A stretch of DNA of 64,000 nucleotides. Origin: Cliona cf. orientalis. Taxonomy: Eukaryota; Porifera; Demospongiae; Clionaida; Clionaidae. Within the stretch, counting starts at the first letter, position 1; every line of letters starts with the position of its first letter. The position numbers and the translations under genes were made by a program. Shown here one piece after another: positions 9,501 to 64,000 of this stretch. Under the pieces are notes generated by a model. That model was not told where the DNA came from. It saw only the letters and a list, made by a program, of their open reading frames with translations, and made no database searches. The stretch is from assembly GCA_963930775.1 (NCBI GenBank), contig OZ005703.1, forward strand, positions 4,340,001 to 4,404,000. Reading direction: 5' to 3'.

Positions 9501-12500
9501 GACTCACCACTAGTGCTCCCAACGGAAATTGGCCCAGAAGGGCAAATGTTGACTGTAAAGTTGACATTTCCATGGCTGTTGATCACTGGGCTGAATGCAG
9601 GCATCTGGAACGGAAATTGAGAAGGGCACGGAAATTGAGAGGTGCACGGAGAGTTCTGAACTACACCCGCTTGGGCAACTTCTTGATTAAAGGACCTCGA
9701 TGTGGATGGTGCAGTGAGAATCTTGCAGGCAGCTTGCTTCTGCTTGATTGCGACTTTCTCGTATTGACGAAGTCCTTTCACAGATCGATGTCCAGTGAAT
9801 TCCTGAATTACCTTCTCTGGAACATTTCTCTCAAACAGCTGGGTGGCTCCAGTGGCCCTCAGGCTATGGTTTGTGAAATGGCCCTCAATGCCCGCCTCTG
9901 AACACATTGTCTTAACCATGTCATTCAAAGTGTGCTTGCCCCTCGGCTGTCGAGAATACCAACATTTGCATTCAGCATACACTTGTAGAGGTCGACAGTA
10001 GAACAGATCCGCCTCTTTAGCTTCGTCAGGGATCTTTGAGATGTATAAATCGAGTAGATAGACCAAGCACCTTTCACCTGCTTCCCTGTTCCTATAAATA
10101 GGCACACATTTGTTCTCCACTCCTAGCTGATAGAAACCACCATTTCTATTTTTGGACCCATGTTCAGTGTACACGTAGTGCTCTTCAGGATCACTGGAAC
10201 GGGTGAACTGGGACAGCTTTAGGTTTCTCTGCTCCTCGCCTCCACGCAAGCAGCAGACTTTCCCCACGTAGAAGAACACAGCCCTTTGTAAACCAATCGG
10301 TGTCTTGGTATTCAGCACACCTTTCTGCCAGAGAAGATCTTCCTCAGCCTCACCGATAACCTGGGCAGACTTTTTGGTTGCACCAATTCCATCTTGCTGT
10401 AGCTTCCGGAAAACTACGTCGCAGGTCCCATGTAGCTTCTTGAAACGACTGTCCTTTCTATCCAAAAAGTTAACAGGGTCAACTTGCACTTCTCTGGAGT
10501 GCCTCAACAAGCCGCAGAGTATCGCATACAAGGTCTTTGCAGGGTACTTGGTGCCGTCAGTTCTCCTTGCTTCTAGGATGAAGCGCTGCAAAGAGCTGCA
10601 CATGACAGCAGGCGGATACTCTTTATCAAGCAAGTCAACAGGGCAGGCATTTTCCTTGTTCCCGTCGAGCGAGTTCCTGTGTTTAGCCCAGGCCGTGTAA
10701 GTATTAACTGCCCATCCAGTGCTTTTGGCAGTATTAGCCGGGACATATCCCTTGGCAGCTTCTTGCACTTCAGCATCAGTAGTGGTGTTGAAGCGAGATG
10801 TGGAGGAGAGCGCTAGCTTCTTAGACGGTTTAGGCAGACTGAGACTTTTTCGCTTGCGTTCAGCTGCTGCAGCCTTTTCTTCGTTCTCTATTTCTTGATC
10901 TAATCTCTCCACGAGCCCTTGGGTACCACAACAGTCAAATTCGACCATGCCCAAACATGCTGGAGAGTTTCCAGGGCAGCGAGGAAAGTCTGGCGTCTCC
11001 ATTTTTTCAAAGATTCTTGAAAATGACTAGTTCAAACGGACTATACTGATTGGTCGCTACGCAAAGCTGCTTAGCAACCTTTCGACGTCATCACCGGGAT
11101 CGAGCATAGACATCGGATCGGATTGGTCGCTAGGTCAAGTTGCTTAGCAACCTTTTGACGTCATCAGTGCACGGGATAGAAGCCAGTTAAATCCCGTGCA
11201 TGCTCGTACAATATCGCGGTTATTTCCGCGTCCTCGGCTGCGCCTCGGACTTGGGAAATAACCGCGATATTGTACTCGCGCCGGGATTTAACTATAACAT
11301 ATAGTTGTATATTATAGCTAATTTTGCAGTCAATCCACAGAGAATTGAACAATAGTACCCGCAAAATAGTCACTTTATGGTATCAAGTCTCAACTACAGT
11401 GTATTCATATCTGGCTATTTGTGCTAATGACAGACAAAAACAATTGCTTTACCCCTTGAGCTTGTGCAAAGGGCAATAATGTATAGTGAAATGCAGTAGT
11501 AAGAATGAAGGAGGGCTGAGGGAGAGAGGAGTAAGACAGGAGACAGAGAGAATCACATACCACATCACTAGAGTGACCAACTTCATGATTGCTTCATTAA
11601 GTACGCCAATACTCTTGACCACCTTTTGTCCCTCTTCACCAAGCCGACCAAGAGTGATTGCAAAGGCCACCGTGAACACAATAATACCGAGAATATTCAT
11701 TCCTCCCCTGGTTCCAAGCTCTACACTGCGCTTATTGTAATCAGTGGCATTGCTACAATCGATGTTATTGTCACCAATGTAGGCTTTGATGTCAGCACAC
11801 AGTGTTAAGTCGCTGGTATTGCTGCTGTTCACTGTATCCATACACAGCTTAAAGTCTGTCACATTCTCATAATCATAGTGAGTCTCTGACTACATAGGAT
11901 AGTGCATTAATACAGTGCAGTTGTGCATTATACAAAATTTACCTGCTGAAATGTAGCTGTGAACAAATTGTTGGGAAATAGGTTTCTGCAAAAAAAAAAA
12001 TCAGTGGTGACATCACACTAGTGCAAAAGGGATGTCTAGAGAGTTCGAGCGCCCCCGTATACATTGCATCTGCATCAGTGTGCACATACCGTAGGCCAGG
12101 TTTTAATTGCGTAGTTTAATGATTGCAGTTTTAAAAATTGCGACATCTAACAAATGCGAATGTCGACCCTGTACCATGTTACGGTATACGCGAATATTGA
12201 TGTTTGCGAATCTATTGATTACGAGCGTCACGATTCGCATTTAATAGATACTCGCAATTAAAACCCGGCCTACGGTAGTAGGGAGCTAGTGCAAGGGTAG
12301 TCTCATAACTTATGTACATATAGAGGGCTAGACTACGAGACTAGTGCACAAGAGCTGCATGCAGAATTTATTGATGCTCTTCACCTATATACTATACTAG
12401 ACTAATTATGCACATGGTGCAGTGGCATGGTCGATAGACATGGCCATGCAGGGGTGGATCCAGGATTTGAGAAAGGGGGGCACAATGATAGGTGCGCACA

Positions 12501-14181
12501 AAATTTTAGGCCACACCCCCAAAATCGATAAACCACGCCTCCTATTTGCCGCGATCGTCTGCTTTCAGGCAGTAAAATGCTCTATTTTGACAAAGTTTTG
12601 AACTTCTGAGCAGAGCTTGGTATGTTTTATGAAAGAACAAGTAGAGTACGCTATAAAACACTGAAGTTTACAGATGAATGAGAAACTCACAGTTGAAGGG
12701 GTGAACTAGCCCCCTATTCCCTCCCCCTGGATCCACCCCCGTATCCGATCTAATTAACGCGCCTTTAAAACATAATTACTGATCTTGGGTGGCGCATAAT
12801 TACAGCACGGAAATTAACGTTCTGGTCCAGGTGGCGCATCTTTTAGAGAGGTGCGTTGTAATTAGAGCGAAAGTATAGAAAACGTGGCTTCCAATACTCA
12901 GTATCAAGTACCAGTACTATCGCGCTATTATCAATTGTAAGTATACCTGTACCACTCTAATTAGTCTAATAGAACATGCCTGGAAATAATAATTAGCATG
13001 CCATGGCCACGTGGCGCATTCTTAGAGCGTGAAAATTAGGATTCTGGCGTAGTGGCGCATTCATTAGAGAGGCGCCTTAATTAGATCGGATACGGTAGTC
13101 ATCAAAAATATAATGCCTGCACATGTGGGCCATGCCAAAAGATTTGAAATACATTGAAGCCAGTTTTTGCTGAATTCGAAGGAATTATTGTGCTTATGAC
13201 TTGATCTGGGAATCTTTGTTCCCACAATGACAGAACTGACTGCTCGATGCCTTGCACATGCACGTGGGGTTTATAATAATAATATGCTCTTTGAGGCACT
13301 GCTATAGACTATACTTTCTCAAGTTTAGGCATTAGTATCTAGATGATGTGGGCTCTGCTTTTGCATGGATCGAAACAGATGAATGTGAACACCACAAAGT
13401 AAAACAACCAATACTCTGTTTATGCACTCAATTTACTTTCCAGCTATGTATTCTGCACAATAGATGCAACATTAATTAATTTATGGATAGATAATAAATT
13501 GAATTTATGGGTGACGATAATTTCATTGTGATTGCATGCGACTGTGTATCACTACATGTATACATGATCTACTCATTTCAGATCCCTATACCTGAACAGA
13601 TCCAAGATGGAATCCAGGGTGTCAAGATCACCATGCGAGGCAGAAGTAGAATTGTTGCACTCAAATTCCTGGCCCCGCCCACCTGGCTTGATGGTCACCA
13701 CGAGAATGATCCCTAATATGATGGCGAGAATTGTCGTGGAGAAATAGTAGAGCACAGTCTTCCAGCCGAGGGATCCGGCGACCTTGGCCTCCAGAGAACC
13801 CAAACCGGCTATCAGGCTGAATACGATGAGCGGAAGGATTAACATCTGCAGCATGCGGATGAACAGCTCGCCGGGGAACCCTAGCAGACGCACCATCAAA
13901 GAGTAAGACTCCTCGCTCAGTGTATTCCTAGCTTCCCGCGCAGGTAGCCCGATGATCACGCCCACTACTACCGAACCAATGGTCAGAACAAGCAGCAGGT
14001 TGGCGAGGAGAACCCGGCCGATGGACTTGGTAACACGGAGGCACTTACCTCCCCCATTACCATTGATGACCAGGGGCGAACTTTCCGTAGACGAGTTGTC
14101 TGCTTCGTCCACTTCACCTGATGTTGCTGTGTCCTCATCATCAGCTACAATGAGAACGCTTTCTTCTTCGTGCTTTGACAT
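516..14181 (-). CDS. Excitatory amino acid transporter (SLC1A/EAAT family), 7 exons
   Basis: Sodium-coupled plasma-membrane carrier that takes up acidic amino acids. Coding exons in order (minus strand): 13592-14181, 11943-11985, 11561-11889, 8012-8245, 5588-5782, 1495-1629, 516-873. All borders are GT/AG, phases agree, and the sum is 1884 nt (627 aa). The ATG at 14181 has an in-frame TGA 12 bp upstream. Family hallmarks seen: the HP1 serine motif GTSSSSATLP (about residues 395-404, split by an intron), NMDGT (432-436) in TM7, the HP2 segment [12 protein letters not shown], and [12 protein letters not shown] in TM8. Arg513 sits where EAATs bind the side-chain carboxylate, so glutamate/aspartate is more likely than neutral substrates. 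The loop between TM3 and TM4 has several N-glycosylation sequons. The tail after TM8 is about 90 residues, proline/serine-rich, and ends ETNL, a class I PDZ ligand. Length is slightly above the usual 520-570 aa. Introns 1-6 are rich in MITEs, and intron 3 holds a recombinase gene on the same strand. Confidence 0.93.
1207..1340. repeat. Dispersed repeat, inverted copy at 8990-9150
   Basis: The stretch around TGGGCATTGTTGCTAGGATC and the following AGAAACCTCCTAAA segment recurs as a reverse complement at 8990-9150, in a different intron of the same transporter gene. The two copies are diverged. No coding capacity is seen, and the family is unknown to me. Confidence 0.6.
2099..2700 (+). mobile_element. 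CG-rich-ended nonautonomous element, family 2, diverged copy
   Basis: Shares a long internal stretch with 26338-27005 and, inverted, with 54310-54905. Landmarks are the GTCGT-rich start, CCTAGGCACCTGAGCGAC, the conserved CTATCGACAGTGCC, and an end near CAATGTGCGTGCAGGGTA. This copy has lost the GCGCATGCGC core of its left end (now CACACGTGCAAGGGG). It lies in intron 5 of the transporter gene and looks like a short DNA-transposon derivative without a transposase. Confidence 0.6.
3145..3585. mobile_element. Putative MITE with TACCGTA-type ends (degenerate)
   Basis: Begins TACCGTATTTTCTCGTTATT and ends AAATACTGTA. The interior repeats AAGYGCA/TTAAGTGCA-like words on both sides in opposite orientation. 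The terminal inverted repeats are poor beyond the outer 10 bp, so this is a weaker member of the TA-bordered set. Confidence 0.4.
4700..5096. mobile_element. G/C-homopolymer fold-back element
   Basis: Inverted ends CAGGGTTTCAT and ATGAAACACTG enclose runs of G and C, including about 32 C at 4756-4788 and several G8-G12 runs. It is in intron 5 of the transporter gene. Similar guanine-run elements lie at 12450-12738 and 44496-44790. Confidence 0.5.
5834..5987. mobile_element. MITE, TACTGTAGTGTCC family
   Basis: 154-bp element with terminal inverted repeats TACTGTAGTGTCCTGGGCAA and its complement ending GGACACTACGGTA, plus internal copies of GGCGCTTACC-like words. The same family occurs in opposite orientation at 30034-30202. 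TA borders suggest a TA target-site duplication. It lies in intron 4 of the transporter, just upstream of exon 5. Confidence 0.75.
6000..6160. repeat. Dispersed repeat, inverted copy at 56805-56945
   Basis: Words such as GGCAAATTG, GGCTATCAGAGGGGT and CCTTAATTGGGGTGCAT recur in reverse complement at 56805-56945. This copy carries an extra hairpin at about 6042-6080 with a perfect 14-bp stem (ATATTATAGACTAC). No coding capacity is seen. Confidence 0.55.
6560..6720. repeat. Dispersed AT-rich repeat, second copy at 28735-28930
   Basis: ATATTTCATGCGATAA, TAATATTGCACATGTATTT and AAGCCAGGCTRTCC appear in the same order at 28735-28930. The copies are diverged, with no clear ends and no ORF. Likely an old short interspersed or DNA element. 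Confidence 0.6.
6797..7316. mobile_element. MITE with TACTGTATAGCC terminal inverted repeats
   Basis: The left end TACTGTATAGCCGGAAAATT and the right end, complement of TACTGTATAGCCAGAAATTT, extend into about 45-bp inverted repeats rich in AAATTTGG. The element is 520 bp with TA at both borders and is noncoding. It lies in intron 4 of the transporter. It shares its first ten bases with the 30818/39200 family but not its interior. Confidence 0.7.
8489..8930. mobile_element. MITE with TACCGTATT ends enclosing a short ORF
   Basis: Inverted repeats begin TACCGTATTACCTCTAATTT at left and, read inward from the right, TACCGTATTGTCTCTAATTT, with repeated GTCCGNTAAATTAGAG and GTCCGGATAATTAGAG blocks. 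A 66-codon ORF (8585-8785, plus) sits in the GC-richer centre. It has no family I recognise and may be a captured fragment or a transposase remnant. Located just upstream of transporter exon 4 in transcript order. Confidence 0.7.
9449..11002 (-). CDS. Tyrosine recombinase, Crypton/DUF3504-type, intact 517 aa
   Basis: Single-exon gene inside intron 3 of the transporter gene, same strand. The N-terminal ~90 residues are charged and low-complexity ([12 protein letters not shown]). Residues ~90-215 look like the SAM-like core-binding region of phage-type integrases, and ~220-420 form the catalytic domain. All expected catalytic residues are visible: Arg253 ([10 protein letters not shown]), a Lys near 284, His379-x-x-Arg382 ([10 protein letters not shown]), His405 (FTGHRS) and Tyr414 (RQYEKV). 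The LRGGEE and [10 protein letters not shown] signatures are those of eukaryotic Crypton recombinases and the related DUF3504 domains of ZMYM2/QRICH1-like proteins. The C-terminal ~100 residues are Ser/Pro-rich and unassigned. The intact frame and complete tetrad argue for either a recent mobile element or a domesticated gene under selection; I cannot decide which. A duplicated regulatory-looking module lies just upstream. Confidence 0.85.
   Translation of the reverse strand: METPDFPRCPGNSPACLGMVEFDCCGTQGLVERLDQEIENEEKAAAAERKRKSLSLPKPSKKLALSSTSRFNTTTDAEVQEAAKGYVPANTAKSTGWAVNTYTAWAKHRNSLDGNKENACPVDLLDKEYPPAVMCSSLQRFILEARRTDGTKYPAKTLYAILCGLLRHSREVQVDPVNFLDRKDSRFKKLHGTCDVVFRKLQQDGIGATKKSAQVIGEAEEDLLWQKGVLNTKTPIGLQRAVFFYVGKVCCLRGGEEQRNLKLSQFTRSSDPEEHYVYTEHGSKNRNGGFYQLGVENKCVPIYRNREAGERCLVYLLDLYISKIPDEAKEADLFYCRPLQVYAECKCWYSRQPRGKHTLNDMVKTMCSEAGIEGHFTNHSLRATGATQLFERNVPEKVIQEFTGHRSVKGLRQYEKVAIKQKQAACKILTAPSTSRSFNQEVAQAGVVQNSPCTSQFPCPSQFPFQMPAFSPVINSHGNVNFTVNICPSGPISVGSTSGESATYEKLLEGVQLDDLM
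11047..11166 (-). promoter_or_regulatory. Duplicated CRE + X-box-like + CCAAT module upstream of recombinase gene
   Basis: Two copies of a ~47-bp unit (11047-11093 and 11119-11166, offset 73 bp). Read in the gene direction each has TGACGTC(A/G), then GGTTGCTAAGCA(A/G)C, then CGACCAATC. The upstream copy has a perfect CRE (TGACGTCA, 11156-11163) and a near-palindromic GTTGC-N3-GCAAC resembling an RFX X-box. The block ends about 45 bp before the start codon at 11002, where a promoter is expected. Motif assignment is by eye. Confidence 0.5.
11186..11292. repeat. Long hairpin (fold-back) sequence
   Basis: Perfect 21-bp inverted arms at 11207-11227 and 11254-11274 (TACAATATCGCGGTTATTTC begins the left arm) around a 26-bp GC-rich loop, extended by outer arms GTTAAATCCCG (11186-11196) and CGGGATTTAAC (11282-11292). 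Probably a small fold-back transposon. It lies between transporter exon 3 and the recombinase promoter. Confidence 0.7.
12087..12276. mobile_element. MITE with TACCGTAGGCC ends
   Basis: 190 bp. The left end TACCGTAGGCCAGGTTTTAA and the right end AAAACCCGGCCTACGGTA are inverted repeats of about 25 bp, with TA at both borders. Noncoding, in intron 1 of the transporter. Confidence 0.8.
12450..12738. mobile_element. Fold-back element with GGGGTGGATCCAGG ends
   Basis: Inverted ends CAGGGGTGGATCCAGGATTT and CCCCCTGGATCCACCCCC, with a G6 run inside the left arm. The right end abuts, or overlaps by a base, the next element at 12738, which implies adjacent or nested insertion. Confidence 0.6.
12738..13097. 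mobile_element. MITE with CCGTATCCGATCTAATTA ends
   Basis: The left end CCGTATCCGATCTAATTAAC mirrors the right end TTAATTAGATCGGATACGGTA. Internal GGTGGCGCAT and TTAGAG blocks recur in both halves. TA is visible only at the right border, because the left border is fused to the neighbouring element. Confidence 0.75.
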
Positions 14182-14297
14182 CCTTACCGATCAGATGCTT
14201 AGTCAGCAAATGCGAAGGGTACAAGCCCCGCCCACAAACGGGTTGCATAAAATTAATACAGTATTGCTCAGACAGTACCTGGTGCTTACTACAAGGA
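14182..14297. promoter_or_regulatory. Probable bidirectional promoter between SLC1A and NOX genes
   Basis: Only 116 bp separate the transporter start codon (minus, 14181) from the proposed oxidase start codon (plus, 14298). It contains a GC-box core GCCCCGCCC at 14225-14233 and an AT-rich GCATAAAATT near 14244, about 50 bp before the oxidase ATG. Transcription starts must lie in or next to this interval unless either gene has an unseen 5' noncoding exon. Confidence 0.55.
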
Positions 14298-17200
14298 ATG
14301 GAGATTCCAAATGCAACTTTGATCATAGTTCGTAGCTCAAGCGTTTCAGAAGATGATGATTCCTCGATTGTCACTAATGGAGACTATTCAGGCAGCATTG
14401 CAAATCAATCCAGAGAAGGCATGATGTTTGCGAATCCTTCAGTGCACTCACCACATGCAGAGTGCTTGGAAAAGATACCCCAAAGATGTGCGATTATTAA
14501 AGGAAACACACAGTCTCTTGAATCTCATATGCTTGAGGAGATTGAGGAAATGGAGGAGGAAGAATTGAACTCTTCTAGTCTGTACCACAAGGATAGTCAA
14601 GATGAGCAGATTCTCGAGGATGATTCACCAACAGAGCTACCGCCTGATGACAACCACTGTGGGAACGGACTGCATAGTGTGTCAACGACTCTGGTGGCTG
14701 ATGGTGAACACCAGACAGAGAGTCTTGAAGATGAGGTCTCCAGTACATTGGAATGGTTCCGCTCCACTTTCAACAAAATTGGCAAAGATGACCGCATCAC
14801 ATTAAGGGACTTTAAGCAGGCTGCAATTGGATGTGACGTAAATACTCAAATTTAACATTTACTACTGTGATTATTTGATTATTCCAGGGGTTTGCGGAAC
14901 ACTTGTTCAAGCTATTTGATACTGACAATAGCTACTCGGTCAGCTTACAGGAGCTAGTTGGAGGAATGGGGCGTCTAACTATGTGAGTTCGCTTTCTTGG
15001 AAAAAGTTAACATTAATTTTATTATGTTAATGGAATGTTAAATAATATCAGTCAGAATAAGAAGAGAAAAATTCTGAGATGGTTTGAGCAGACATTCGCT
15101 TCAGTTTCTGGAGATGACCAACTCTTGCATCTGGATGACTTCACAAGAGCCATGCATATCAATGGCGTAAGTCACAGGTGTATGCAAACATCTAAGTGCA
15201 GACTATACTTACTTGCCTGCACTGCTTTGCTGCATGCTTGCATGAATTGATCAATTTCACAGTTCACTGACTAGAAAATGACCTGCAATGTTATTGTACA
15301 CTGTTGCTTAGCTACGCTGCCGGATCCAACTTCACTTACTGTAATAATATTATTAAAGTATCACCCATGATTGACTGTATGATATAAAGAGGTTATAAAT
15401 ATCCTTGGTGATGATAATAATACTATTCTTATGTAGATTAACAATGTTTCTGACTCAGTTTGTTGATAGATTGTACCAGCTAATGGATATCAGTGGTGGT
15501 CGTCTTACTTTGCCTGAGCTGCTGGATGCCTTTGGAAAGATAGCATGGTTAGCATATCATAATATACAGTATGAATAATTATTAAAGCAAGATCTCATGC
15601 TATAGTATGGATCGTGATGCAAAGTGGCTGGCTTGGTTTGAGCAGCAGTTCTCCAATCTTGCAGGAAGTGATCGCCAAATTGACCTCGAAGAGTTCAAAG
15701 AGGCCTTGCATGTAAAAGAGGTGAGCATGATTTCCAGAGTAATTCCTAAAACTAACTCTCGAGCTGGGTGGAGATTTCTTCCTCTAACTAGTGTTCATGC
15801 ATTTTAATCATCGTGAAAGGCTACTGCTACTATTAACCCAGATTCTCATGACATTGTGTGTTGTATTATGGTACATGTGCAGTCTTTTTTTGCTGAGAGA
15901 TTCTTTCGTCTTTTTGACAAAGATAGCAGTGGCTCCATTAGTTTAAGGGAGCTCATGGATGGCCTCACTTTGCTCACCAATGGCTCTGAAGTAGATAAAC
16001 TTCGCTTTCTCTTTCAAGTCTATGATGTTGACGGTAACTAACCATAATTATGATGTGTGATGCAAAGTTTTCGAGAGATATGACTTTTCGATTACCATAA
16101 CGTGTATGCTTCAATAAAGTTTTGATCCCTCAATTGCTGCTATAGTGTTAGTAATATTATTTCTCCAGGTAATGGGTTCATTGATTTTGATGAGCTGCGC
16201 ACGGTGCTCAAGTCCTGTATGGGAGAGAGTACGCTGCAGTTCAGTGATGACAAGCTTGATGATCTAACAAGAGCGCTGATTGAAGATGCTGATGTGGATA
16301 ATAGTGGTACCATTACTTTTGAAGAGCTGCAGGCCCAACTAGACAAATATCCTGGTGTGATAGAAAACCTTACAATAAGGTGAGACAAAACATGCAGTGT
16401 AACATCTACTATCACTACATTAGTATTATCACTACAACTGTACATCACTGTTTGTTATTGCAACAACTGTTGCCAACTACACACTTACAAAAGCATCCAT
16501 AACAGTTCCTCCTCCACTCCTATAACACTCATAATATTGAAACTTGCTGACGTAATAGTGAAATTACCACACACACACACACTCACATACATACATGCAG
16601 TGCGGCAAACTGGTTGAAGCCACCCAAATTTTCCTGCAGAAGAACATTGAATGACTTTATCCCTCACTGGCTAAAGTGGCGCTACATACGAAACAATCTG
16701 ACTTGGGTCATCTGGGTGATCATATACTTCTTTATCAATCTATTTCTCTTTGTTGAAGCAGCCGTAAGGCACAGGCATAGTGTAAGCTGGAATTAACGTG
16801 CATAACGTCTTTATCAAGTTCCGTATCATGCAACCTTTAGTATTTATACACGTTTGTTTATGGTGATTTAGAACTATCCATAATTATCTCTCTGGGGAAC
16901 TAAGGGTACTGGCATGTTAATGGATCCGAGTGCAGAGACTGCTACCATAGAATCCAAAACTTTAGAGTTTATGGATCACTATAATGAAGCCATAAAGATT
17001 TTCTCATAGACAGAGGGCATGGAAGTCAGTTAAGATACACTATGAATAGTTGTATGATATTCGCCAATGTAGGGTATTGCTGTTGCCCTAGCACGTGGTT
17101 GTGGACAGTGCTTGAACTTCAACCCTACATTTGTCATTATTTTGATGTTTCGTCGAGTTCTTACATGGGTGCGGTCAACAAGGATCTCCTTCCTGTTTCC

Positions 17201-19892
17201 CCTGGATCAGAGCATTGAGCTCCACAAGCTTGTTGGGTGGACAATTCTCTTCTTCTCCAGTCTCCATACACTATCCCACGTTGCCAATTTCAGTAAGTAA
17301 TATCACATGAATCAGTCAATATCTATTCTTTTGCTACATTTACTGCGGGGAGGGGATGGGTGGTAGTGGTGAAGAGGAACCCTATATAGCAACGTACTGG
17401 GTAGTACATGTATAATGCATACCGTATTAATTTTATGTTTGTGTATGTGATTGACTCATGATTCACTGATGGACTTGCCACACACAGCCCTCCTCTCCCT
17501 GAAGCCTGATGGACTTCCCTTGTGGCAGTACTTCTTCTTTGTACAGACAGGCCTTGGTTGGGTGTATGGTACAGCTGGACTCACTGGATGTTGCCTGCTT
17601 GTCATCCTCACTATCATGGTGCTGTGTTCTTTGCCTTGTGTACGAAGAAAGGGATACTTTGAAGTGTGCACTACAAATAATATTATGTATAATACCGGTA
17701 TTATACCAACTACCATATTATTACATTTTTAGGTATTTTTCTGGACCCACAATCTCTTCATTCCCTGGTACATCCTGCTGATTCTCCATGGCACACACTT
17801 TTGGAAGTGGTTCTTAGTTCCAGCACTGGTCTACATCATTGAGAGGATAATCAGATCAAAGTGGATTAAGTTGGCTAGGTATGGACGGATATATATCAAA
17901 GAAGCCTCACTCTTACCTTCAAAGGTAAACATTGATTAACTGTCTAGACAGTTAAGTCCCAGCAATGATTGTATGACTATTGATTAAGTGGGGGTTTAAT
18001 GATAAAACACCTTAATTACCTCACTGCATTTGACGTTACTTCCACACACACACAACAATGCACACTCCCATGATCATAGGTTACACATCTTGTTCTTTCC
18101 CGACCACTGAAGCTCAACTACCAGCCCGGTGACTACGTCTTCCTGCGAGTACCAGCCATTGCCAAGTATGAATGGCATCCCTTCACTATCTCTTCTACAC
18201 CTGAACAACATGGATTCCTATGGCTTCACATACGCTCTGTTGGCACTTGGACAAACAAACTCTACAAGTTTTTTGAGGAGCGAAACCAACTTCACCAGAA
18301 GGAGACCATCAAGATGCAGCTTCCTCGAGAGAGGCAGAGCACACACATAATTGAGCTGGAGCAGATGGCAGTGCAGGAAGTGGATGGAGAATCATGTGAC
18401 CTAGAATCTCTTAATGATGTACATCCACTGGCTGTTGATGAGGAAGTCATTGATGAAGTGTATGTTCACTAATGATATGTTTTGGGCCGATTAAAGTGTT
18501 GATCATGTAGGAATGTTGCGATGACTCGTGGACAAGATTTCTCGCACATGACAGGCTACCCTGCTGTCATCAATGTGCAAGTGGATAAGGAAGAAGATAA
18601 AGGAATTGAAGTAGGTTTTAGTCCGATATGTATATATGTCCAGAATAAAGTAATTTTGCAGGTATTCATTGATGGTCCATACGGTACTCCATCAACGCAC
18701 ATCTTCCAAGCTGAGCATGCTGTACTGATTGGAGCTGGTATTGGAGTGACACCATTTGCCTCCATACTACAGAGCATCATGATGAGGTATGCATCTATGT
18801 AGTTTAATAGCAGGAATGATAACTACTAGAATCTGATGGAATGTGTGAATATACTATAGGTTTGTACAAAAGCAGATGCTATACCATAAACTACAATGGT
18901 ATGTGCATAAAAATGCAAATCAATAAAAAAAAAACAGACTTCTCTAGAAAAATTTATATTGCACAGTGAAGTTTATATTGTGGGAACAAGGCTCTACTTA
19001 ATACATGTAGCTTTATAGCCGCCATTAAAATTAAATTACGCAGCCTAACCTGCATTACATGTACATACATGTATTATGTATCATCTTAGCATCAGTGCAT
19101 CATTAGAGCCCAGAATGTATTTGTTAGGTACCACAATGCTCGTCAAGTGTGCCCCAGATGCAACCACGGGTGGACTGGGGAGATACCTTCTTCTGTAATG
19201 AGGCTCAAAAAGGTAGAGTAATAATTACTTGTCACTATTTTTTTACTTGCATATTTGCTATGATAAAATTATCTTGTTGAAGGTTGATTTTTTCTGGATC
19301 AATCGTGATCAGCGTTCCTTTGAGTGGTTTGTGAGTCTGTTGAATCAGCTGGAGATGGAGCAGAGTGAACAAGGAGGATTTGACCGGTTTCTCGACATGC
19401 ACATGTACATGACTTCAGCTCTGAGGAAGACAGACATCAAGGCTATTGGTCTACAGATGGCTCTCGATCTGATTCACAAAAAGCAGAAGAGAGATCTCAT
19501 AACTGGCTTGAAGACAAAGACACAGGCTGGAAGACCAGATTGGGAAAAGGTTTATAAATAATTTCACCAGTACTGTATTTCGTATCTCCTGGCACTCAAG
19601 CATTATAATAATATTATTACTGTGGGTAAGTAACAGCACTGCAGCACATAGCATCTGCCCAGAAAAAGCAGGTCACATACCTATACTGATGAAGAGAATT
19701 GCTATAAGAGTACCTAACGGATTAGGTAATGTCATTAATAATAGTATTAATCATCTATAGGTCTTCCGAAAGTTGGACAATGAAAGGAGAGGCAGAGTTT
19801 CGGTGTTTTTCTGCGGACCTCCAGCAATAAGTAAAATTCTTAAGTCCAAGTGTGCTCAATATCGATTTGAGTTTCGTAAAGAACATTTTTAG
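14298..19892 (+). CDS. NOX5-like calcium-regulated NADPH oxidase, copy A, 17 exons
   Basis: Membrane flavocytochrome that moves electrons from NADPH through FAD and two hemes to oxygen, making superoxide. Exons: 14298-14837, 14888-14982, 15052-15166, 15459-15547, 15606-15720, 15883-16033, 16169-16379, 16601-16781, 17073-17292, 17488-17663, 17733-17924, 18080-18459, 18511-18610, 18662-18786, 19128-19212, 19283-19549, 19761-19892; phases agree, 1057 aa. Residues 1-148 are acidic and unassigned. Residues 149-439 hold eight EF-hand-like modules; canonical loops are DKDSSGSISLRE, DVDGNGFIDFDE and DVDNSGTITFEE, with DTDNSYSVSLQE close. Six helices follow (about 475-675) with heme His pairs HKLVGW...LHTLSH (14 apart) and THNLFIPW...LHGTH (13 apart). 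Then HPFTISS (FAD), DGPYGTPS, GAGIGVTPFAS and FFCGPP (NADPH) and C-terminal KEHF. The DLITGLKTKTQ..GRPDW segment is NOX5-typical. The frame is open upstream to 14175, so an earlier start or exon is possible. Exon 13 is a separate linker exon absent from copies B and C. Confidence 0.93.
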
Positions 19893-20267: not shown

Positions 20268-23200
20268 ATGGCTACTGTTGCTGCACTAAGTCCTGAGATA
20301 GCAGTATTAGAGGAAAATACATTGAACAGTGCTCAGCAGCCTCTGATGACAGATACTCATGATCAGGCTGCCACAGCAGTTACTCCGCTTGGTCCTTGCA
20401 TCCAGTACGAAGATGCTGCAGAAGATATGGAAAATGTCTTCCAAGTGATATTTATAGTGAATAGCAAAACACAGGAAGAAGCTCTCCCAAATTCAGGGTC
20501 TGCACATGCAAATATTGAGCAACAAGCATTGCAAGGAAGTATAGATCACACTTCACAAGGAAAAGGGGCAAACCAGGCTGATTGCCACGAGGATCAAGAA
20601 AAAGAATCACAACTGCAGGCTGACACAGGCTGTAAAGATGAGACAGCAAACATGCTAGAATGGTTCCGTTCCATATTCAGTCAAATAGAGAGGAATGGGA
20701 TCATTACATTGAAAGATTTCAAGGAAAAAGCTAGACACTCTGATGTATGTAGTCTTAAGCAAATTAGCGAACTGGTACAATAGGGATAAAGTGTATTGGT
20801 GCTGGCTCATTGCATGATATCATTCGTCTGACATTACACACTGATGCAGGAATTTGCAAAGCAGCTTTTTAGTCTATTTGATGCTGATAGCAATGGCTCT
20901 ATCAGCTTACAAGAACTCATGGGAGGAATAGGCCGCCTCTTATGGTAAGACTTAGTGAAAATTTAATAATCATCATTAAACAGCATACGGCTGATTAGAC
21001 TACTCAATTAGCATCAGCAATCAAACAAGTTAGTTCCCTGTATGAAACTGAAGAACTTTCTGATGTTGATCTTCCTTATCGTCAAGTACCCTTATAACAA
21101 TAATTAGGTGCCTAGGCCGTTATTCAGATGTCCTGCAAGGTCCTTCCATGCATATTACCTTTAGGCATGTTTTTACTCTTGATCTAGTGATAGCTGATAT
21201 AGTTCTGGGAAAGCTAGATATATTTTCATAATAATTGTGTACATGCCTAGCACGGTTTATTATACACATGCACACATAACACACACATCACTGCACATCT
21301 GCAATTTTGAAAATTTCAGCCGAAGCAGGAAAGGAAAGCCCACTCTGAAATGGTTTGAGGATACATTTGTTTGCATCTCAGGAGAGGATCAGCTTCTTCA
21401 AATTGATCAGTTTATAACATTTGTCCACAGAGAAGATGTAAGCAGTTAGTGAATTCTGCACTTCTAGCAAACACACAAATTGATGCTGAATGTTTGCATG
21501 CATGAATGCAGTACAATTTACAAATTATGGGATTGCCATGCATTTGCTTACTTAAACACAAGAAATGCATTATAAATATTGATGCAAGAGTGTACATGGC
21601 CACTTCAGGAGTACACAAAGGTCATTATGATTGTACACGTAGTAGATACCTACACTGGCATAAATTACAGCAGCTGCAAAGTTACTATAATAATATTATA
21701 GTGTATAATGATATTAATTTTGTACTAAATTAATAAAGGTAAAGATATAGTTATTGTTTTGGCTCCTATTATTAGAAACTGTCAGTGCTCCATGCAATAC
21801 TGAACTCAGTTGTCACTTGCATAATGATCTTGCATGAATCAAACAATTGAATAAAGGATATGTGATAATAGTGGTATACTGAGAGCATGCACTTTCCAAT
21901 ACACACATAGTTCATTGAAAGGTTCTATGGCCTAATGAGTGGTGAGAACAAGGACCTCAACTTGAGCATGATGCTAAATGCATTCAGCAAGATTGCTAGG
22001 TTAGTCAACATTATTCAGGAACTATGCATGTTGCCAGTTTCACTAGAATGTTTTGATCTTAACAGTTCCAATAGTGACACTAAATGGTTAGAATGGTTTG
22101 AGCAAAAATTTTCAAGTGTTGGTGGAAGCAATCAGGAGATAAACTTTGATGAATTCAAGAAAGCATTGCACATTAAAGAGGTACAGCTAAATATGATTTT
22201 GCTCACTTTCTGCAATCTTATACTTGATTCATCACTATTACTGATGTGTGATAGTCATTCTTTGCAGAACGATTCTTTCAAATCTTTGACAAGGACAAAA
22301 ATAACAGTATTAGTTTGCACGAGCTCAGAGAAGGTCTATCTCTACTGACAGGTGGCTCAGATATTGACAAACTCCGTTTTCTCTTTCAAGTGTATGATAT
22401 TGATGGTAAGTGCATTAAAAAATTCTACAGCTGGGCATACTATATCTTATTTGTTTACACTCTTGAGGTAATGGACATATTGACTTTGAGGAATTGCGTA
22501 CAGTGCTGGAATCCTGTATGGGAGAAAGTGCCCTTCAGTTCAGTGATGAGCAGCTAGATGAGTTGACCAGAACACTGCTTGAAGATGCTGATGTTGATAA
22601 TAGTGGTTCTGTTACTTTTGAGGAACTTCAATATGCCCTGAGTAGGCATCCTGGTTTGGTTGAGAATCTCACCTTTAGGTTAGTAATGCTACTCTATGTA
22701 CTTACTTAAAGCATTACCTGTTTGTCACTTATACTATTAATTTTATCCTCAGTGCTGCAAACTGGTTTCAGCCTCGCACAAGAGCACATCAAAGAAGGAG
22801 AATTAAACGTATCCCACACTGGATGAGACTGAACTATCTCAGAAATAATCTCACTTGGATCATCTGGCTCTCCATGTATTTTGTTGTCAATATAGTTCTT
22901 TTTGTTGAAGCAGCCATAAGGCATCGCAATAAGGTAACTCACTAGTCATCATAAGCTCTATATGTTCCATAATTACTTTCTAAACCACTTTAGGGTCTGG
23001 CTGTTGCCCTAGCACGTGGCTGTGGTCAATGTTTGAACTTTAATCCTACATTTATCATCATCTTAATGTTTCGCCGAGTCTTAACGTTGGTGAGATCGAC
23101 AAGGTTCTCATTTTTGTTTCCCCTGGATCAGAGCATCAAATTCCACAAGCTTGTGGGCTGGACCATTTTTTTCTTTGCCTCTATTCACACTATAGCACAC

Positions 23201-25287
23201 GTTGTCAACTTTAGTAAGCAATTCAGTTAGTACATAGCACATTGTAATAATATCCCACACGACAGCCCTGATTTCCATGGAGCCTGGCAGCATTTCTTTG
23301 TGGCGATACTTTTTCTATGTGAAGACAGGAGTTGGTTGGGTATTTGGAACTGCAGGACTCACTGGTATCTTTTTACTTTTGCTTCTGATGATCATGGTGG
23401 CTTGCTCTCTACCCTGTGTGCGTAACAAGGGATTCTTTGAAGTAAGTGCATCAAATTATTCACCGTGATTTCTAAACTCTGCCATACCATTAATTTTATA
23501 GGTGTTCTACTGGACCCACAATCTCTTCATTCCCTGGTACATCCTGCTGATTCTCCATGGTACACACTTTTGGAAGTGGTTCTTAGTTCCAGCACTGGTC
23601 TACATCATTGAGAGGATATTGAGATCAAAGTGGATCAAACTAGCAAGACATGGACATTTCTATGTAAAGTCGGCTTCAACTTTATCATCAAAGGTAGTGA
23701 CATAGGAGATGAGGTTTATCTCACTTGTGTTGCTCCATTTAAGAATAGTGTGAAAACTGTATTACACAGAAATATTTCATACAGTCATGAACTTAATTTC
23801 TCCCTTAGGTCACCTATCTTGAATTGACTCATCCCAAGCGATTCAACTATCAACCTGGGGACTACCTCTTCCTTAAGATTCCATCCATTGCTAAGTATGA
23901 ATGGCATCCCTTCACCATGTCCTCTTCTCCTGAGCAAGACTTCATTGGGCTCCACATAAGAGCCGTTGGTACTTGGACCAATAAACTTTATGACTTTATT
24001 GTTGAATACAACAAGACACTTAAGAAAAAAGCTGAGCAAGCAGAGAGGATCATAAGATTTAACCAAGAACAGAATGAAGATCTAGTATTCGCCAATGTGC
24101 ATTCAACCGATGTTGATATTGAGCAAGCAGAAAGCAGTAATTGCAACATCCCACTAGAGAGCACAATCAGGAAAGTTGATGAAACCATTGACTTCTGCAA
24201 GAGGATTGAAGTAAGTTGATCGCCAGGATAACACTACACCAATGTAATATCATCTTTAACAGGTATTCATTGATGGTCCATATGGTACTCCATCAACGCA
24301 CATCTTCCAAGCAGAGCATGCTGTGCTGATTGGAGCTGGTATTGGAGTGACACCATTTGCCTCCATACTGCAGAGCATTGCTAGCAAGTAAGAATGGTTG
24401 CAATCCTTTACATTGCACCTGTCATATAATTGAATTTTAGATATCGTAGTATCCGTCAAGTTTGTCCCCGATGTACTCATGGATGGACCGGAGATATTCC
24501 TTCATCTGTAATGAGATTAAGAAAAGTATGTTATAATTTCATTAGACAGATACAACTTTATTCTTCTATCATAATATTTGTATGGGCATACCACAATAGG
24601 TTGACTTTTTCTGGATAAGTCGAGATCAACATTCCTTTGAATGGTTTGTCAGTCTGTTAACAAACCTTGAGATGGAGGAGAGTGAACGAGAGCAAAATGG
24701 CTTTGAGCGATTCCTTGACTTTCATTTGTACATGACATCAGCACTGCGCAAAACTGATATGAAAGCAATTGGTCTCCAGATGGCTTTAGATCTCATCCAC
24801 AAGAAAGAGAATCGTGATCTCATTACTGGCTTGAAGACAAGGACTCAAACAGGGAGACCAGACTGGGATAAAGTAAGTCTGATTAATTTTATCTTGGCCT
24901 TCCCATATTACACTGATTCAGAACATAAAAAAAAACATAGGAAGGCCTGGGTACGAGGCTACTCCAGGTATATGATTTATAGTTGGAATTAGGCATCACA
25001 ATTTTTGGAACAAATAAGAGCATAATTATAGGGGTAATTCTTTGAAAAACTAGAAGTATCTTAGCCACACACTTCATTATATTATAAGCAATCTCGTCAC
25101 TATCTTGTATATAGCAATGGATATAACATTATTAAAAAGATCATTGAAATTTCAGGTCTTCAGAGATTTAGAGAAGAAAAAGAAGGGAAAAATTTCTGTG
25201 TTCTTTTGTGGTCCTCCTGCAATCAGCAAAATTCTGAAGATGAAATGTGCTAAATATAAATTTGAATACCGCAAGGAACATTTTTAA
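20268..25287 (+). CDS. NOX5-like calcium-regulated NADPH oxidase, copy B, 16 exons
   Basis: Tandem paralogue of copy A. Exons: 20268-20744, 20850-20944, 21320-21437, 21911-21999, 22066-22180, 22255-22405, 22468-22678, 22753-22933, 22994-23213, 23266-23441, 23502-23693, 23809-24210, 24263-24387, 24441-24525, 24600-24872, 25156-25287; phases agree, 1013 aa. The N-terminal ~130 residues are acidic and unlike copy A. Eight EF-hand-like modules follow; canonical loops are DADSNGSISLQE, DIDGNGHIDFEE and DVDNSGSVTFEE, with DKDKNNSISLHE close and the fourth (MSGENKDLNLSM) dead. A basic stretch (HQRRRIKR) precedes TM1. Heme histidine pairs, HPFTMSSSPEQ, DGPYGTPS, GAGIGVTPFAS, FFCGPP and the KEHF end are intact. 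The FAD-NADPH linker (about 725-809) is one exon with copy B, where copy A has an intron, and is rich in Lys/Glu. Closer to copy C than to A in the basic pre-TM1 segment and the FAD domain. Confidence 0.93.
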
Positions 25288-49285: not shown

Positions 49286-49310
49286 CATGCCCAGTACTGC
49301 ATAATGATTA

Positions 49311-49855: not shown

Positions 49856-49892
49856 TTAGCACCAATGGTGTTCATTAATTATGGTAAAAGGT

Positions 49893-50000
49893 CGTCAATA
49901 TAGTGCATACACAGTCCGACTCCAAGCCACATCGATATCGGCGCCTCAATCGCAGAGATGGAGTCTGAGACCGACTCTCGATTTCGACACCGACAATTTT
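49893..50000. repeat. Dispersed ~110-bp repeat, inverted copy of 40009-40123
   Basis: Carries AATCGCAGAGATGGAGTCTG and TCCAAGCCACATCGAT in reverse order relative to the first copy. Confidence 0.7.
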
Positions 50001-52742: not shown

Positions 52743-52752
52743 CAAGACTACC

Positions 52753-52786
52753 TAGTCTCACGCGGAGGGGCTGGCGCGCGAGACTA
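52753..52786. repeat. Short hairpin, TAGTCTCR...CGAGACTA type
   Basis: TAGTCTCACGCG pairs with CGCGCGAGACTA. Third example of this hairpin type in the window. Confidence 0.6.
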
Positions 52787-60204: not shown

Positions 60205-63200
60205 ATGGCATCTGAGAACGAGACAACCGAGTCTCAGACTCTGCAGTGGTTCCGTTCCAGCTTTAGTAAGGTGGAACAAAATGGTTTCATTTCACTAAGG
60301 GACTTCAAGCATGCTTCACATAGAAGCTGTCATGTAAGTTCATATCATGCATGCTGGAAGTACGTGTATGGCCCATAGAATTACAATTCAATGCGATGCA
60401 TGTGAATAACCATCACACATGCTTTCAGAGTGCTGCATGATAATGATAAATGAGTGGTAGAATAATACCATGGAGTTGTATATTAATAGTAGAGTCAATC
60501 TAACTATCCATGGGGGTTGGGGAGGAGTGATTCACATGCATGCCGGCCTTGACCTGCAGTGACTCTGCTGCATTTTGCTCAAATGTACATATTATAATAT
60601 GTATAATATAATATAGGACTTTGCAGAGAATCTTTTTAGCTTATTTGATACCGATGGCAGTGGTTCTATCAGCTTGCAAGAACTCATGGGAGGAATGGGA
60701 CGCCTTTTGAGGTAAGCTCTATAGATAGATATTTGTTGTACAATGACTTTCTTTGGTTTTTATTGATGGCAACCAATCAGAGTTGAATTTTAAAACATGG
60801 GTGATGGTATTAGCCTCATCCCCAGGACCCTGGGCCTGGAGATGAGGCTATAATGATGTATCTGCACACTTTGCAGTCAAAGCAAGAAAAGGAAACTTTT
60901 GAAATGGTTTGAAGAAGTATTTGTCCATCTCTCAGGGGAAGATCAGCCAATCCAAGTTGACCAGTTTGCTACAGCCATTCATACAGACCAAGTAAGTGGC
61001 TTCCACTCGGGTCACATAGAAACCAACTGAAATATAAAGCTGATCTGGCCACTTGGTACAAGTCATGCCTGTATGGTGCTAGCTTAGACAATGGCTCTAT
61101 TGTTACTTTCAAATATTTCCTTATGCAAGGCTACAAGGTTCGATTAGATATCTTTGAATGTCATATGCAAAAGAGTGTATTGATTCAGGCCACTGCAATA
61201 TTATATAAGATGCATATGATTTTATCTTTATACTATAGTTTATTGAGAGATTTTATGATCTTATGGTGAATAACAATGAGAGTCTTAGCCTAAAATACCT
61301 GCTGAATGCATTCAAGAACATAGCAAGGTTAGTGGAGATTCTTCACATACATGCGTGAATGCATAATATTGCTGTATGTACCAACAGTACTGATAGAGAT
61401 CACAGATGGCTGGAATGGTTTGAACAGAAATTTTCTGGTCTTCCTGATGAGATCAATTTTGAGCAATTCAAGAATGCACTGCATATCAAGGAGGTGAAAC
61501 TTTTTCTGGTTCTTTATTATTTTTATGTCAATCTATGGATCCATATAAGTTATTATTCTCATGCATGTATAGTCCTTCTTTGCTGAAAGATTCTTCCACA
61601 TTTTTGACAAGGAAAAGAGTGAATACATTAGTCTCAAGGAGCTCAAGGAGGGGTTATCCCTATTGATCAATGGTTCAAAGACAGATAAGCTTCGATTTCT
61701 CTTTCAAGTGTATGACATTGATGGTAAGTAGCTAGTAGCCAATATATGCAGCAGCAGTATTGATTGATGTTCCTATATTCAATTTAGGTAATGGAAATGT
61801 TGATTTTGAGGAATTACGTACAGTGCTCAAATCTTGTATGGGCGAGAGTGCCTTGCAGTTCAGTGATGACCAGCTAGATGAACTAACACGAGCACTGATT
61901 GAAGATGCTGATGCTACCAATAGCGGTTCACTTACATTTGAAGAGCTTCAGATCGCCTTGAGAAAGCACCCTGGTTTAATTGAAAATCTCACCTTCAGGT
62001 AAGAGGTATACCTTTGATCTATTATTCAAGATTGACTGTATGCTTTCACTATAATATTATTGTAGTGCTGCCAACTGGTTTCAGCCACACCAGAAGCCCC
62101 GAAGGAGGAGGAGGATCAAACGATTGCCACACTGGATGAGGTTGCATTATTTCAGAAATAACCTCACCTGGGTCATTTGGTTGTCCCTCTACTTTGCTGT
62201 AAACATAGTTCTCTTTGTTGAAGCAGCCTACAGACATAGGAAGAAGGTCAGATAATATGTGTACAGTTATACAGCAATTCATAGTCATGGCATCTGGGCC
62301 AGTACTGGTGACACATGCTTTTCAGATTGTGTATAGCTGCATGCAAGCTACCATGCAGTAGCCTAGTTAAAGAGGTTCCCTCTTCATCATTATTTTTATG
62401 CTGGATATTGATTTTGGAATGTTCCAGGGTGTTCCAGTTGCCATAGCACGTGGCTGTGGTCAATGTTTGAACTTTAATCCCACATTTGTCATCATCCTAA
62501 TGTTTCGTCATGTGCTATCCTGGGTGCGTTCAACAAGGATCTACTTTCTATTCCCTCTGGACAATTCCATAAAATTTCACAAACTTGTGGGATGGATGAT
62601 ATTCTTCTTTGCCAGTCTTCATACTCTTGCACATGTTATCAATTTCAGTAAGTAGCTATGTGGGCATACTTTGCTAATTAATTAATTTCAATCGATTATT
62701 GATTATGTATGGTTACCCCCAGCTCTCGTATCATTGAGGCCTGGTAGCCTTCCCTGGTGGCAGTACTTTTTCTATGTAAACACTGGGCTTGGTTGGGTGT
62801 ATGGCACAGCTGGACTCACTGGTGTCTTCTTGATGATTATCTTAGTGATCATGGTACTCTTCTCTCTGTCATGTGTGAGAAGGAAAGGATTCTTTGAGGT
62901 GTGTATAAACTTACTACAGTCAACTGACAAAATAAACCAACCTCTATCTGCATTTAAGGTGTTCTACTGGACCCACAATCTCTTCATTCCCTGGTACATC
63001 CTGCTGATTCTCCATGGCACACACTTTTGGAAGTGGTTCTTAGTTCCAGCACTGGTCTACATCATTGAGAGGGTAATCAGATCAAAGTGGGTGGAATTGG
63101 CAAGATATGGGCGATTCTATATCAAGGCAGCTTCCAACATGCCATCAAAGGTAAACCCTGGGAAAAAGATTGTAGCTATTACTTTTAGGATAAACCCACA

Positions 63201-63940
63201 AACATAATTAGCTACATTGTTTGTAATGCAGGTCATTTTCCTAGGTTTGACTCGCCCCAAGCGATTCAACTATCAACCAGGGGACTACATCTTCCTTAAG
63301 ATTCCATCCATTGCTAAGTATGAGTGGCATCCCTTCACCATGTCCTCTTCTCCTGAGCAAGACTTCATTGGGCTCCACATAAGAGCCGTTGGTACTTGGA
63401 CCAACAAGCTTTATGAGTTTGTGGATGACATAAGTCAAGCTCAGAAGCAGAGTGTTGAAAGAGCAGAGAAACGGTTTCAATTAAAGACACCTGGCATAGA
63501 TATGACAGACGAAAAAGATAAAGAGGGTGAGCAGAAAATAGCTATCACTCTGGATACTAGCACTGGAGCTCTGGATCAAAATGGAAGCTATAGCAAAAGT
63601 TTGGAGGTTAGCTACGTGCAGTAAACAAACTTGGACTTCACTAGCTCTCTAGAAGTAATAATCCTCGTTAAACTAGGTTTTCATTGATGGTCCATATGGA
63701 ACTCCTTCACTGCACATCTTCCAAGCAGAGCATGCTGTGCTGATTGGAGCTGGTATTGGAGTGACACCATTTGCCTCCATACTGCAGAGCATTGCCAGCA
63801 AGTGAGTTCAAATAAATTGAATTATAGGCAAATACTAGAGTGATTGTGAATGCAGGTACCGTAATGTCCGTCAGCTGTGCCCACGATGTAATCATGGCTG
63901 GACAGGTAACATACCTTCATCTATTATGAGATTAAAAAAG
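60205..63940 (+). CDS. NOX5-like calcium-regulated NADPH oxidase, copy C, 14 exons seen, 3' end outside window
   Basis: Third paralogue. Exons: 60205-60333, 60617-60711, 60877-60991, 61239-61327, 61388-61493, 61573-61723, 61788-61998, 62066-62246, 62428-62647, 62723-62898, 62959-63150, 63232-63606, 63677-63801, 63856-63940; phases agree, 750 aa so far. By comparison with A and B, two exons (the GRPDW and FFCGPP segments and the KEHF end) lie beyond 64000. The N-terminus is only ~11 residues before the first EF module, without the acidic 130-150-residue extension of A and B. Loops DTDGSGSISLQE and DIDGNGNVDFEE are canonical; DKEKSEYISLKE and DATNSGSLTFEE have lost a position-3 Asp. The pre-TM1 segment is strongly basic (RRRRRIKR). 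Heme His pairs, HPFTMSSSPEQ, DGPYGTPS and GAGIGVTPFAS are intact. The linker between the FAD and NADPH regions is one exon, as in B. The fifth exon is 9 bp shorter than in A and B. Confidence 0.92.
60811..60850. repeat. Hairpin TAGCCTCATCCCC...GATGAGGCTA in NOX-C intron
   Basis: TAGCCTCATCCCCAGG pairs with CCTGGAGATGAGGCTA around a small loop, in intron 2 of NOX copy C. A half copy (TAGCCTCATCCCCAGACC) is at about 58361. Confidence 0.65.
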
Positions 63941-64000
63941 GTTTGACAACTAGCTACTGTAGCTACGATTATGGCAGACTGGTATAATATCTATTTTGGT

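What the first reader, a model, noticed from the sequence alone, without database searches (positions are those of the whole stretch)
14700..16379. NOX5-type oxidases with eight EF-hand modules, built by repeated exon-pair duplication
Each of the three NOX genes has four successive pairs of EF-hand-like modules, where NOX5 in other animals has four modules in all. In copy A pairs 1-3 share one layout: an exon with a WFxxxF...F(K/T) half ending in phase 0, followed by an exon opening with an FxxxLFxLxD-type half. The downstream pair (FLFQVYDVDG onward) follows the ancestral NOX5 layout. In all copies the fourth module has lost its calcium ligands, while the second keeps a near-canonical or canonical loop. 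The sensor therefore probably has four or five working sites spread over twice the usual length, which could change calcium threshold or cooperativity. The duplication predates the split of the three genes.
Basis: partly seen in the sequence, partly recalled or inferred. Interest (0 to 1): 0.75.

Follow-up and report, generated by a model that had tools for sequence, protein, structure and literature searches.

The report
NOX5 oxidases with tripled N-lobe
Three clustered genes, part of a family of five found in this genome, encode calcium-activated superoxide-making enzymes of the NOX5 kind whose calcium-sensing arm is twice the usual length because one half of it was copied twice; this is a real but incremental variation on a known enzyme.

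Summary
Copies A and B lie wholly in the window; copy C runs past its end. All three, and two further genes found in the same genome, are intact NOX5-type NADPH oxidases with four EF-hand pairs. Human NOX5 aligns from the third pair on, so pairs 1 and 2 are additions. They are copies of NOX5's own N-lobe: a profile of pair 2, which has lost its calcium ligands, finds human NOX5 residues 10-67 as its only credible PDB match (E 5e-7), and pair 1's best match is the same lobe (E 2e-12). Intron phases repeat in all five genes, and each pair groups together across them.

The functional inference holds only in part. Modules doubled, but canonical calcium loops did not: A 3, B 4, C 2, D 2, E 0, human 3, by one recalled pattern. 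C and D lost the ancestral EF2 and EF4 loops and kept EF3 and the loop of added module 2. Sites moved rather than multiplied.

Published surveys give NOX5 up to four EF-hands; one insect paper reports five. Other sponges could not be searched. New variant of a known kind.

The parts
14298..19892 (+). NOX5-type gene copy A, 17 exons, 1057 aa
   Evidence: GT-AG exon model without internal stop; human NOX5 is best PDB match, E 8.8e-253; [quoted passage not shown]
14298..14837 (+). A exon 1: leader of about 150 aa plus module 1 (first half of added pair 1), ends phase 0
14888..14982 (+). A exon 2: module 2 (second half of added pair 1), loop DTDNSYSVSLQE, phase 0 to 2
15052..15166 (+). A exon 3: module 3 (first half of added pair 2), phase 2 to 0
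15459..15547 (+). A exon 4: module 4 (second half of added pair 2), no canonical calcium loop, phase 0 to 2
15606..15720 (+). A exon 5: module 5 = human NOX5 EF1 (calpain-like), phase 2 to 0; has an in-frame ATG at its start, in copy A only
15883..16033 (+). A exon 6: module 6 = human EF2 and the start of module 7
16169..16379 (+). A exon 7: rest of module 7 and module 8 = human EF3-EF4 (C-lobe)
20268..25287 (+). NOX5-type gene copy B, 16 exons, 1013 aa, eight modules
   Evidence: spliced alignment with A, GT-AG, no internal stop
20268..21999 (+). B exons 1-4: leader, added pairs 1 and 2
22066..22678 (+). B exons 5-7: ancestral N-lobe and C-lobe (pairs 3 and 4)
60205..64000 (+). NOX5-type gene copy C, 16 exons, 884 aa; runs on beyond the window to window-equivalent position 64496
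   Evidence: with flanking DNA
60205..61327 (+). C exons 1-4: added pairs 1 and 2; start codon lies 12 residues before pair 1
61388..61998 (+). C exons 5-7: pairs 3 and 4, with module 5 shortened and modules 6 and 8 degraded

Best explanation
These are NOX5-type oxidases in which the N-lobe of the calcium sensor (EF1-EF2, an exon pair) was duplicated twice in tandem, giving N-lobe / N-lobe / N-lobe / C-lobe ahead of an ordinary NOX catalytic core (shown from sequence; about 0.95). The gene then multiplied to five copies. Inferred (about 0.4): activation still runs as in human NOX5, with the calcium-loaded C-lobe (pair 4) binding the dehydrogenase domain and N-lobes being needed for the switch. 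The added lobes do not raise the number of calcium sites. Instead they let sites move: pair 1 carries a good site in module 2, pair 2 is a ligand-poor structural lobe that links pairs 1 and 3, and in copies C, D and E the original N-lobe has itself become ligand-poor. Each copy would then have its own calcium threshold on a similar catalytic core.
For: Human NOX5 (PDB chain residue 4 on) aligns with A from residue 282, leaving pairs 1-2 extra. Profile of pair 1: best PDB match human NOX5 10-64, E 2e-12; next E 1.3e-7, over one EF-hand (305 sequences matched, 60 listed). Profile of pair 2: human NOX5 10-67, E 5e-7; next 0.014, not an EF-hand protein; five matches in all at E up to 10. hhalign with shuffles. 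Intron phases 0/2/0/2/0 at matching places in 5 of 5 genes. Pair tree: p1 95/89, p2 98/97, p3 with the human N-lobe 86/87. Start codons lie 10-12 residues upstream of pair 1 in C and D. The added pairs are constrained: over 10 gene pairs dN is 0.13-0.33 (pair 1) and 0.16-0.51 (pair 2), against 0.56-1.29 in the insert between the FAD and NAD parts and 0.25-1.09 in the leader (only 10 codons in 7 of 10 leader comparisons). Where dS could be estimated, dN/dS is 0.05-0.23 for pair 1 (6 of 10) and 0.03-0.32 for pair 2 (5 of 10), against 0.25-1.00 for the insert (9 of 10). Loop counts and loss of the module 5 closing Glu show redistribution. Literature: in human NOX5 the C-lobe binds calcium more tightly (Kd 3.8 against 15-20 micromolar) and touches the dehydrogenase domain (tested with the C. 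stagnale domain), and csNOX5 without its N-lobe showed low or no calcium activity, with lower expression (PMC7317449, passages).
Against: No transcript, protein or calcium-binding data. dS could not be estimated or is very high in many comparisons, so dN/dS is rough. Loop function is judged by a PROSITE-like pattern recalled from memory; a failed pattern does not prove loss of binding (copy E scores 0, yet its modules 2, 7 and 8 each fail at one position only). The pair tree warns that the long branches of p1 and p2 meet, so the order of the two duplications is unsettled, and p3 support is below the program's star level. No structure of the spliced protein was predicted. The functional steps are transferred from human and cyanobacterial NOX5.
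Confidence: 0.7

Rival explanations
1. The added lobes are not calcium sensors but an adaptor arm: they fold as EF-lobes and bind a partner, the membrane or the enzyme's own tail, and the calcium switch is set by pairs 3 and 4 alone.
For: Modules 1, 3 and 4 have no canonical loop in 5 of 5 copies, yet both pairs are conserved.
Against: Module 2 is canonical in B, C and D; A keeps all six ligand positions and differs at the non-ligand position 6, and E differs at position 3. In C and D module 2 is one of only two canonical loops left. That pattern is hard to explain without calcium binding.
Confidence: 0.3
2. Alternative promoters or splicing tune the number of lobes, so that eight-, six- and four-module forms are made from one gene.
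For: Exons 3+4 together are a multiple of three in 5 of 5 genes and lie between phase 2 introns, so skipping pair 2 keeps the frame; exons 2+3 and 4+5 are also multiples of three. Copy A has an ATG at the start of exon 5 (15607), close to where the human chain begins.
Against: The in-frame property follows from the duplication itself. Exon 5 holds such a Met in A only of five copies; ATGs inside the preceding introns were not examined. No RNA data.
Confidence: 0.2
3. The eight-module sensor is older than this lineage: the early animal NOX5 already had extra N-lobes, and vertebrates lost them.
For: Nox5 of N. lugens, Apis and Tribolium is reported with five EF-hand motifs by SMART, and N. lugens Nox5 is 1210 aa long (PMC7564065, passages).
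Against: The same paper gives four motifs for pea aphid, Drosophila and Bombyx. Massari et al. 2022 report up to four EF-hands in calcium-dependent NOXs (PMC9421330, section 3.2). Kawahara et al. 2007 state four motifs for Nox5, a group in which they count insect orthologues (PMC1940245, passages). The insect motifs were not shown to be copies of the N-lobe. No other animal sequence could be searched here.
Confidence: 0.25
4. Pairs 1 and 2 were captured from another EF-hand protein such as a calcineurin B or calcium-dependent kinase relative.
For: Many EF-hand proteins also match the pair 1 profile (305 sequences at E up to 0.1), and one, a centrin-1, does so over profile positions 9-54 (E 7e-5).
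Against: Most of the 60 listed matches to pair 1 lie in its second half only. NOX5 is first by far (E 2e-12 against 1.3e-7) and pair 2 matches no other EF-hand protein at E up to 10. In the genome, 20 of 20 scored matches to pairs 1-2 lie in the five NOX5 loci.
Confidence: 0.03

Closest known systems
Human NOX5 (PDB 6sz5, 8u7y, 8u85-8u87)
   Same: Catalytic core, and pairs 3-4 = EF1-EF4, aligned in two stretches that cover most of the chain; EF1 calpain-like and EF2-4 canonical in human (PMC7317449 and PMC9421330, passages)
   Different: Human has one N-lobe and one C-lobe; here two more N-lobe copies and a leader of about 10 to 150 aa precede them, and canonical loops are redistributed
Insect Nox5 with five SMART EF-hands (N. 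lugens, Apis, Tribolium; PMC7564065)
   Same: NOX5 with more than four EF-hand motifs
   Different: Five motifs reported, not described as pairs or duplications in the passages I saw; sequences not available here
DUOX (PDB 7d3e, 6wxr)
   Same: NOX core with EF-hands
   Different: DUOX has a peroxidase domain and two EF-hands (PMC5372347 and PMC9421330, passages); the genome also holds three DUOX-like loci on C17 and C3 (their peroxidase part was not looked for)
DspNOX of demosponges (PMC9524095)
   Same: Calcium-regulated sponge NOX
   Different: DspNOX has a PAS domain, a disordered region and extra transmembrane segments; no PAS or cytochrome b561 domain appears in the Pfam table of copy A

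Membership tests
NOX5 | Ferric reductase, FAD-binding and NAD-binding domains of NOX | tested here: met
   Pfam PF01794, PF08022, PF08030 over cut-off in copy A; the other four spliced copies were not scanned whole but align with A through these parts
NOX5 | Four haem-binding histidines | tested here: met
   All four motifs found by pattern in A-D; in E three by pattern, the fourth read directly in the protein (LSMVHVIAH). That these are the haem ligands is recalled from known NOX
NOX5 | N-terminal EF-hand domain before the transmembrane part | tested here: met
NOX5 | Closest solved relative is NOX5 | tested here: met
   Copy A: human NOX5 E 8.8e-253; next 5o0x putative ferric reductase (C. 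stagnale NOX5, name recalled) 5.2e-83; DUOX1 2.8e-72
NOX5 | Exactly four EF-hands (a usual description, not needed for kinship) | tested here: not met
   Eight modules in 5 of 5 genes
NOX5 | Superoxide production activated by calcium | not testable with these tools
   needs expression
DUOX | Animal haem peroxidase domain | tested here: not met
   absent from the Pfam table of copy A at E up to 0.001
DspNOX | PAS domain and extra transmembrane module at the N-terminus | tested here: not met
   absent from the Pfam table of copy A at E up to 0.001

The most novel reading that the evidence does not exclude
Eight-module NOX5 is an old animal design in which calcium sites migrate between repeated N-lobes, and the four-EF-hand NOX5 of vertebrates is a shortened form. 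EF-hand number in NOX enzymes would then have risen by acquisition and not only fallen by loss.
Probability: 0.22. Interest if true: 0.65.

Novelty: new variant of a known kind. Interest (0 to 1): 0.42.

Why it matters
A published survey concludes that differing EF-hand number among calcium-dependent NOXs is probably due to loss rather than acquisition (PMC9421330, passages). These five genes show an acquisition: the N-lobe was copied twice inside the gene. Because the five paralogues share a core but differ in which loops keep ligands, they are a natural series for asking what the N-lobe does in NOX5, which the human work calls unclear (PMC7317449, passages).

Tried and rejected
Rejected: capture of pairs 1-2 from another EF-hand protein; pseudogenes (no internal stop and no non-GT-AG intron in 5 of 5 models); a further NOX5 with four EF-hands only in the same genome. 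On the last: the 9 matches to FAD_binding_8 are the five NOX5 loci, three DUOX-like loci and one locus at C17:660463 that I take for NOX2-like by eye; the 7 matches to Ferric_reduct add only a sub-cut-off one at C16:7566547. These searches go exon by exon and are lower bounds. No tblastn match to the five proteins (E up to 1e-3) lies outside the modelled exons in the 81 kb joined stretch or the 18 kb E stretch.

Led nowhere: a scan of prokaryote genome contigs with alignment A1 (three of the five copies, without the NAD part) gave 62 pattern matches and no relative. Copies C, D and E first received doubtful leader exons from my aligner, and B an incomplete one; I replaced them by reading the open frame upstream of module 1 and shifted one intron of E by four bases to the site used by the other copies. 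The aligner is my own script and was not benchmarked. In one search the pattern for module 3 missed B and E, so I claim nothing from it there. Paper searches (terms such as eight, additional, six and five EF-hand, number of EF-hand, exon duplication) showed no description of a NOX5 with eight modules; one search returned 1,789 papers of which 20 were listed, and the library lacks most subscription papers.

Full report
What is there. The window is C15:4340001-4404000 of a 216.8 Mb genome in 149 contigs. Copy A was modelled by hand from the sequence: 17 exons, 1057 aa, every intron GT-AG. Copies B, C, D and E were modelled with my own spliced aligner using A as query and then corrected at the first exon and, in E, at one intron. 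All five give one open protein (1057, 1013, 884, 909 and 956 aa) with 16 or 17 exons. A, B and most of C are in the window; D starts about 3 kb after C ends; E is on contig C19. A search of the genome with A's pairs 1-2 gave 20 matches, all 20 in these five loci. A search with A's pairs 3-4 gave 23 matches: 15 in the same five loci, 3 in the DUOX-like loci, and 5 on C12 and C16 that I did not examine. No NOX5 gene with four EF-hands only was found.

What the extra part is. phmmer of A against the PDB aligns human NOX5 from chain residue 4 with A residue 282, so human EF1-4 are modules 5-8. Pairs 1 and 2 match the human N-lobe. With a single sequence the signal is moderate (E 2.6e-5 for A pairs 1-2, aligned over pair 1 only). 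With five-sequence profiles it is clear: pair 1, E 2e-12 over both halves; pair 2, E 5e-7 over both halves, with the next match at 0.014 to an unrelated enzyme. Pair 2 is the more telling case, because it has lost its canonical loop and so cannot match through a generic EF-hand. hhalign scores rank pair 1-3 > pair 2-3 > pair 1-2, each well above 40 shuffles. Pair 4 matches pairs 1 and 3 above shuffles too (31.3 and 26.5 against maxima of 22.7 and 17.3), but over 20-22 columns only, which is the generic EF-hand signal; pair 2-4 is within the shuffles.

How it arose. Pairs 1, 2 and 3 are each split by a phase 0 intron between their halves, and pairs 1/2 and 2/3 are parted by phase 2 introns, in all five genes. 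An exon pair with phase 2 on both sides can be duplicated without breaking the frame. The tree of 15 pairs of this genome and the human N-lobe puts each pair on one side of a branch (95/89 for p1, 98/97 for p2, 86/87 for p3 with human). The program warns that long branches of p1 and p2 meet, so the order of the two duplications is not settled. Holding the five own p3 rows together without human was not rejected (p-AU 0.25). Rooted with human, pairs 3-4 give A first, then B, then E, then C with D (98/96, 82/84, 85/87).

Calcium sites. A strict pattern (PS00018 as I recall it) finds modules 6, 7, 8 in A; 2, 6, 7, 8 in B; 2 and 7 in C and in D; none in E; EF2, EF3, EF4 in human. The last agrees with the literature. 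E's modules 2, 7 and 8 each fail at one position. For the calpain-like first halves, module 5 keeps the human length and closing Glu in A and B, but C, D and E have 11 residues in place of 14 and Gln in place of Glu. Module 4 has no canonical loop in any copy. So the added modules did not double the number of sites.

Selection and exchange. Over 10 gene pairs, dN of pair 1 is close to that of pair 3 (higher in 7 of 10), and dN of pair 2 is higher than that of pair 3 in 10 of 10, but both added pairs evolve far slower than the insert between the FAD and NAD parts. Among residues that agree, codons agree in 0.54-0.61 of cases in the EF exons for B-C, B-D and C-D, in 0.58-0.74 in the transmembrane part and in 0.76-0.88 in the FAD and NAD parts. 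The transmembrane tree separates A and B from C, D and E (95/95), whereas the NAD tree separates A and E from B, C and D (80/77). I read this as gene conversion between the neighbouring genes B, C and D that evens out the 3' catalytic exons and spares the sensor exons. Codon bias is a possible alternative, though comparisons with A or E do not show the contrast as strongly.

How it probably works. From human and cyanobacterial work (PMC7317449, passages), the C-lobe folds on calcium and touches the dehydrogenase domain, and loss of the N-lobe left low or no calcium activation. I propose that pair 4 keeps that job here, that pair 3 couples to it, and that pairs 1-2 form an added arm with one good site in module 2. 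That step is inference (about 0.4). The adaptor and the splicing rivals remain open.

Against what is known. Kawahara 2007 (passages), Gandara 2017 (passages) and Massari 2022 (passages and section 3.2) give NOX5 four EF-hands, and Massari argues that numbers changed probably by loss and not by acquisition. Hewitt and Degnan 2022 (abstract, passages and NOX results section) list sponge NOX5 genes, for example 3 in Amphimedon besides one DspNOX; the parts I read do not give their EF-hand number. One insect paper (passages) reports five motifs in three species. I saw no description of eight modules in the searches listed under Tried and rejected. Pfam finds mostly one of the four added modules, so motif scans could overlook such an extension.

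Verdict. It is a new variant of NOX5, interesting to NOX and EF-hand specialists, not a new kind of system.

Noticed in passing
B 23809-25287, C 63232-64000 and on, D at C15:4410398-4411756: FAD and NAD parts of copies B, C and D are much more alike at silent sites (0.76-0.88 identical codons) than their EF exons (0.54-0.61), with identical coding runs of up to 158 nt between B and C: likely gene conversion of the catalytic part.
   Followed up: partly
9452-11026 (-): Intronless 525-aa open frame with DUF3504 and Phage_integrase domains, on the same strand as, and just downstream of, two parts of a sodium:dicarboxylate symporter gene (13576-14190 and 11452-11889); a third part may lie at 5533-5871 (by eye), which would put it inside an intron. 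It looks like a tyrosine-recombinase element or a host gene derived from one.
   Followed up: partly
48632-54211: Nested inverted and direct repeats: arms 51983-52742 and 53001-53760 are 98% complementary over 760 nt, and a 300-nt direct repeat (48632, 53001) is 100% identical; no Pfam match for one repeated open frame (53134-53667).
   Followed up: partly
32863-35394 (+): 844-aa open frame with weak matches to GH141 insertion domain (27.8 bits, cut-off 27) and, below cut-off, pectinesterase and right-handed beta helix; its origin could be worth a look.
   Followed up: no
L006, L008 (C17), L007 (C3): Three DUOX-like loci whose EF-hand and NOX core lies in single open frames of 895, 927 and 909 aa, in contrast to the intron-rich NOX5 genes of the same genome. 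Pfam was run on the L006 frame only.
   Followed up: no
copy A residues 767-848 (exons 12-13, within 18080-18610) and equivalents: The stretch between the FAD and NAD parts holds a long, nearly unconstrained insert (dN/dS 0.25-1.00 in 9 of 10 comparisons).
   Followed up: no
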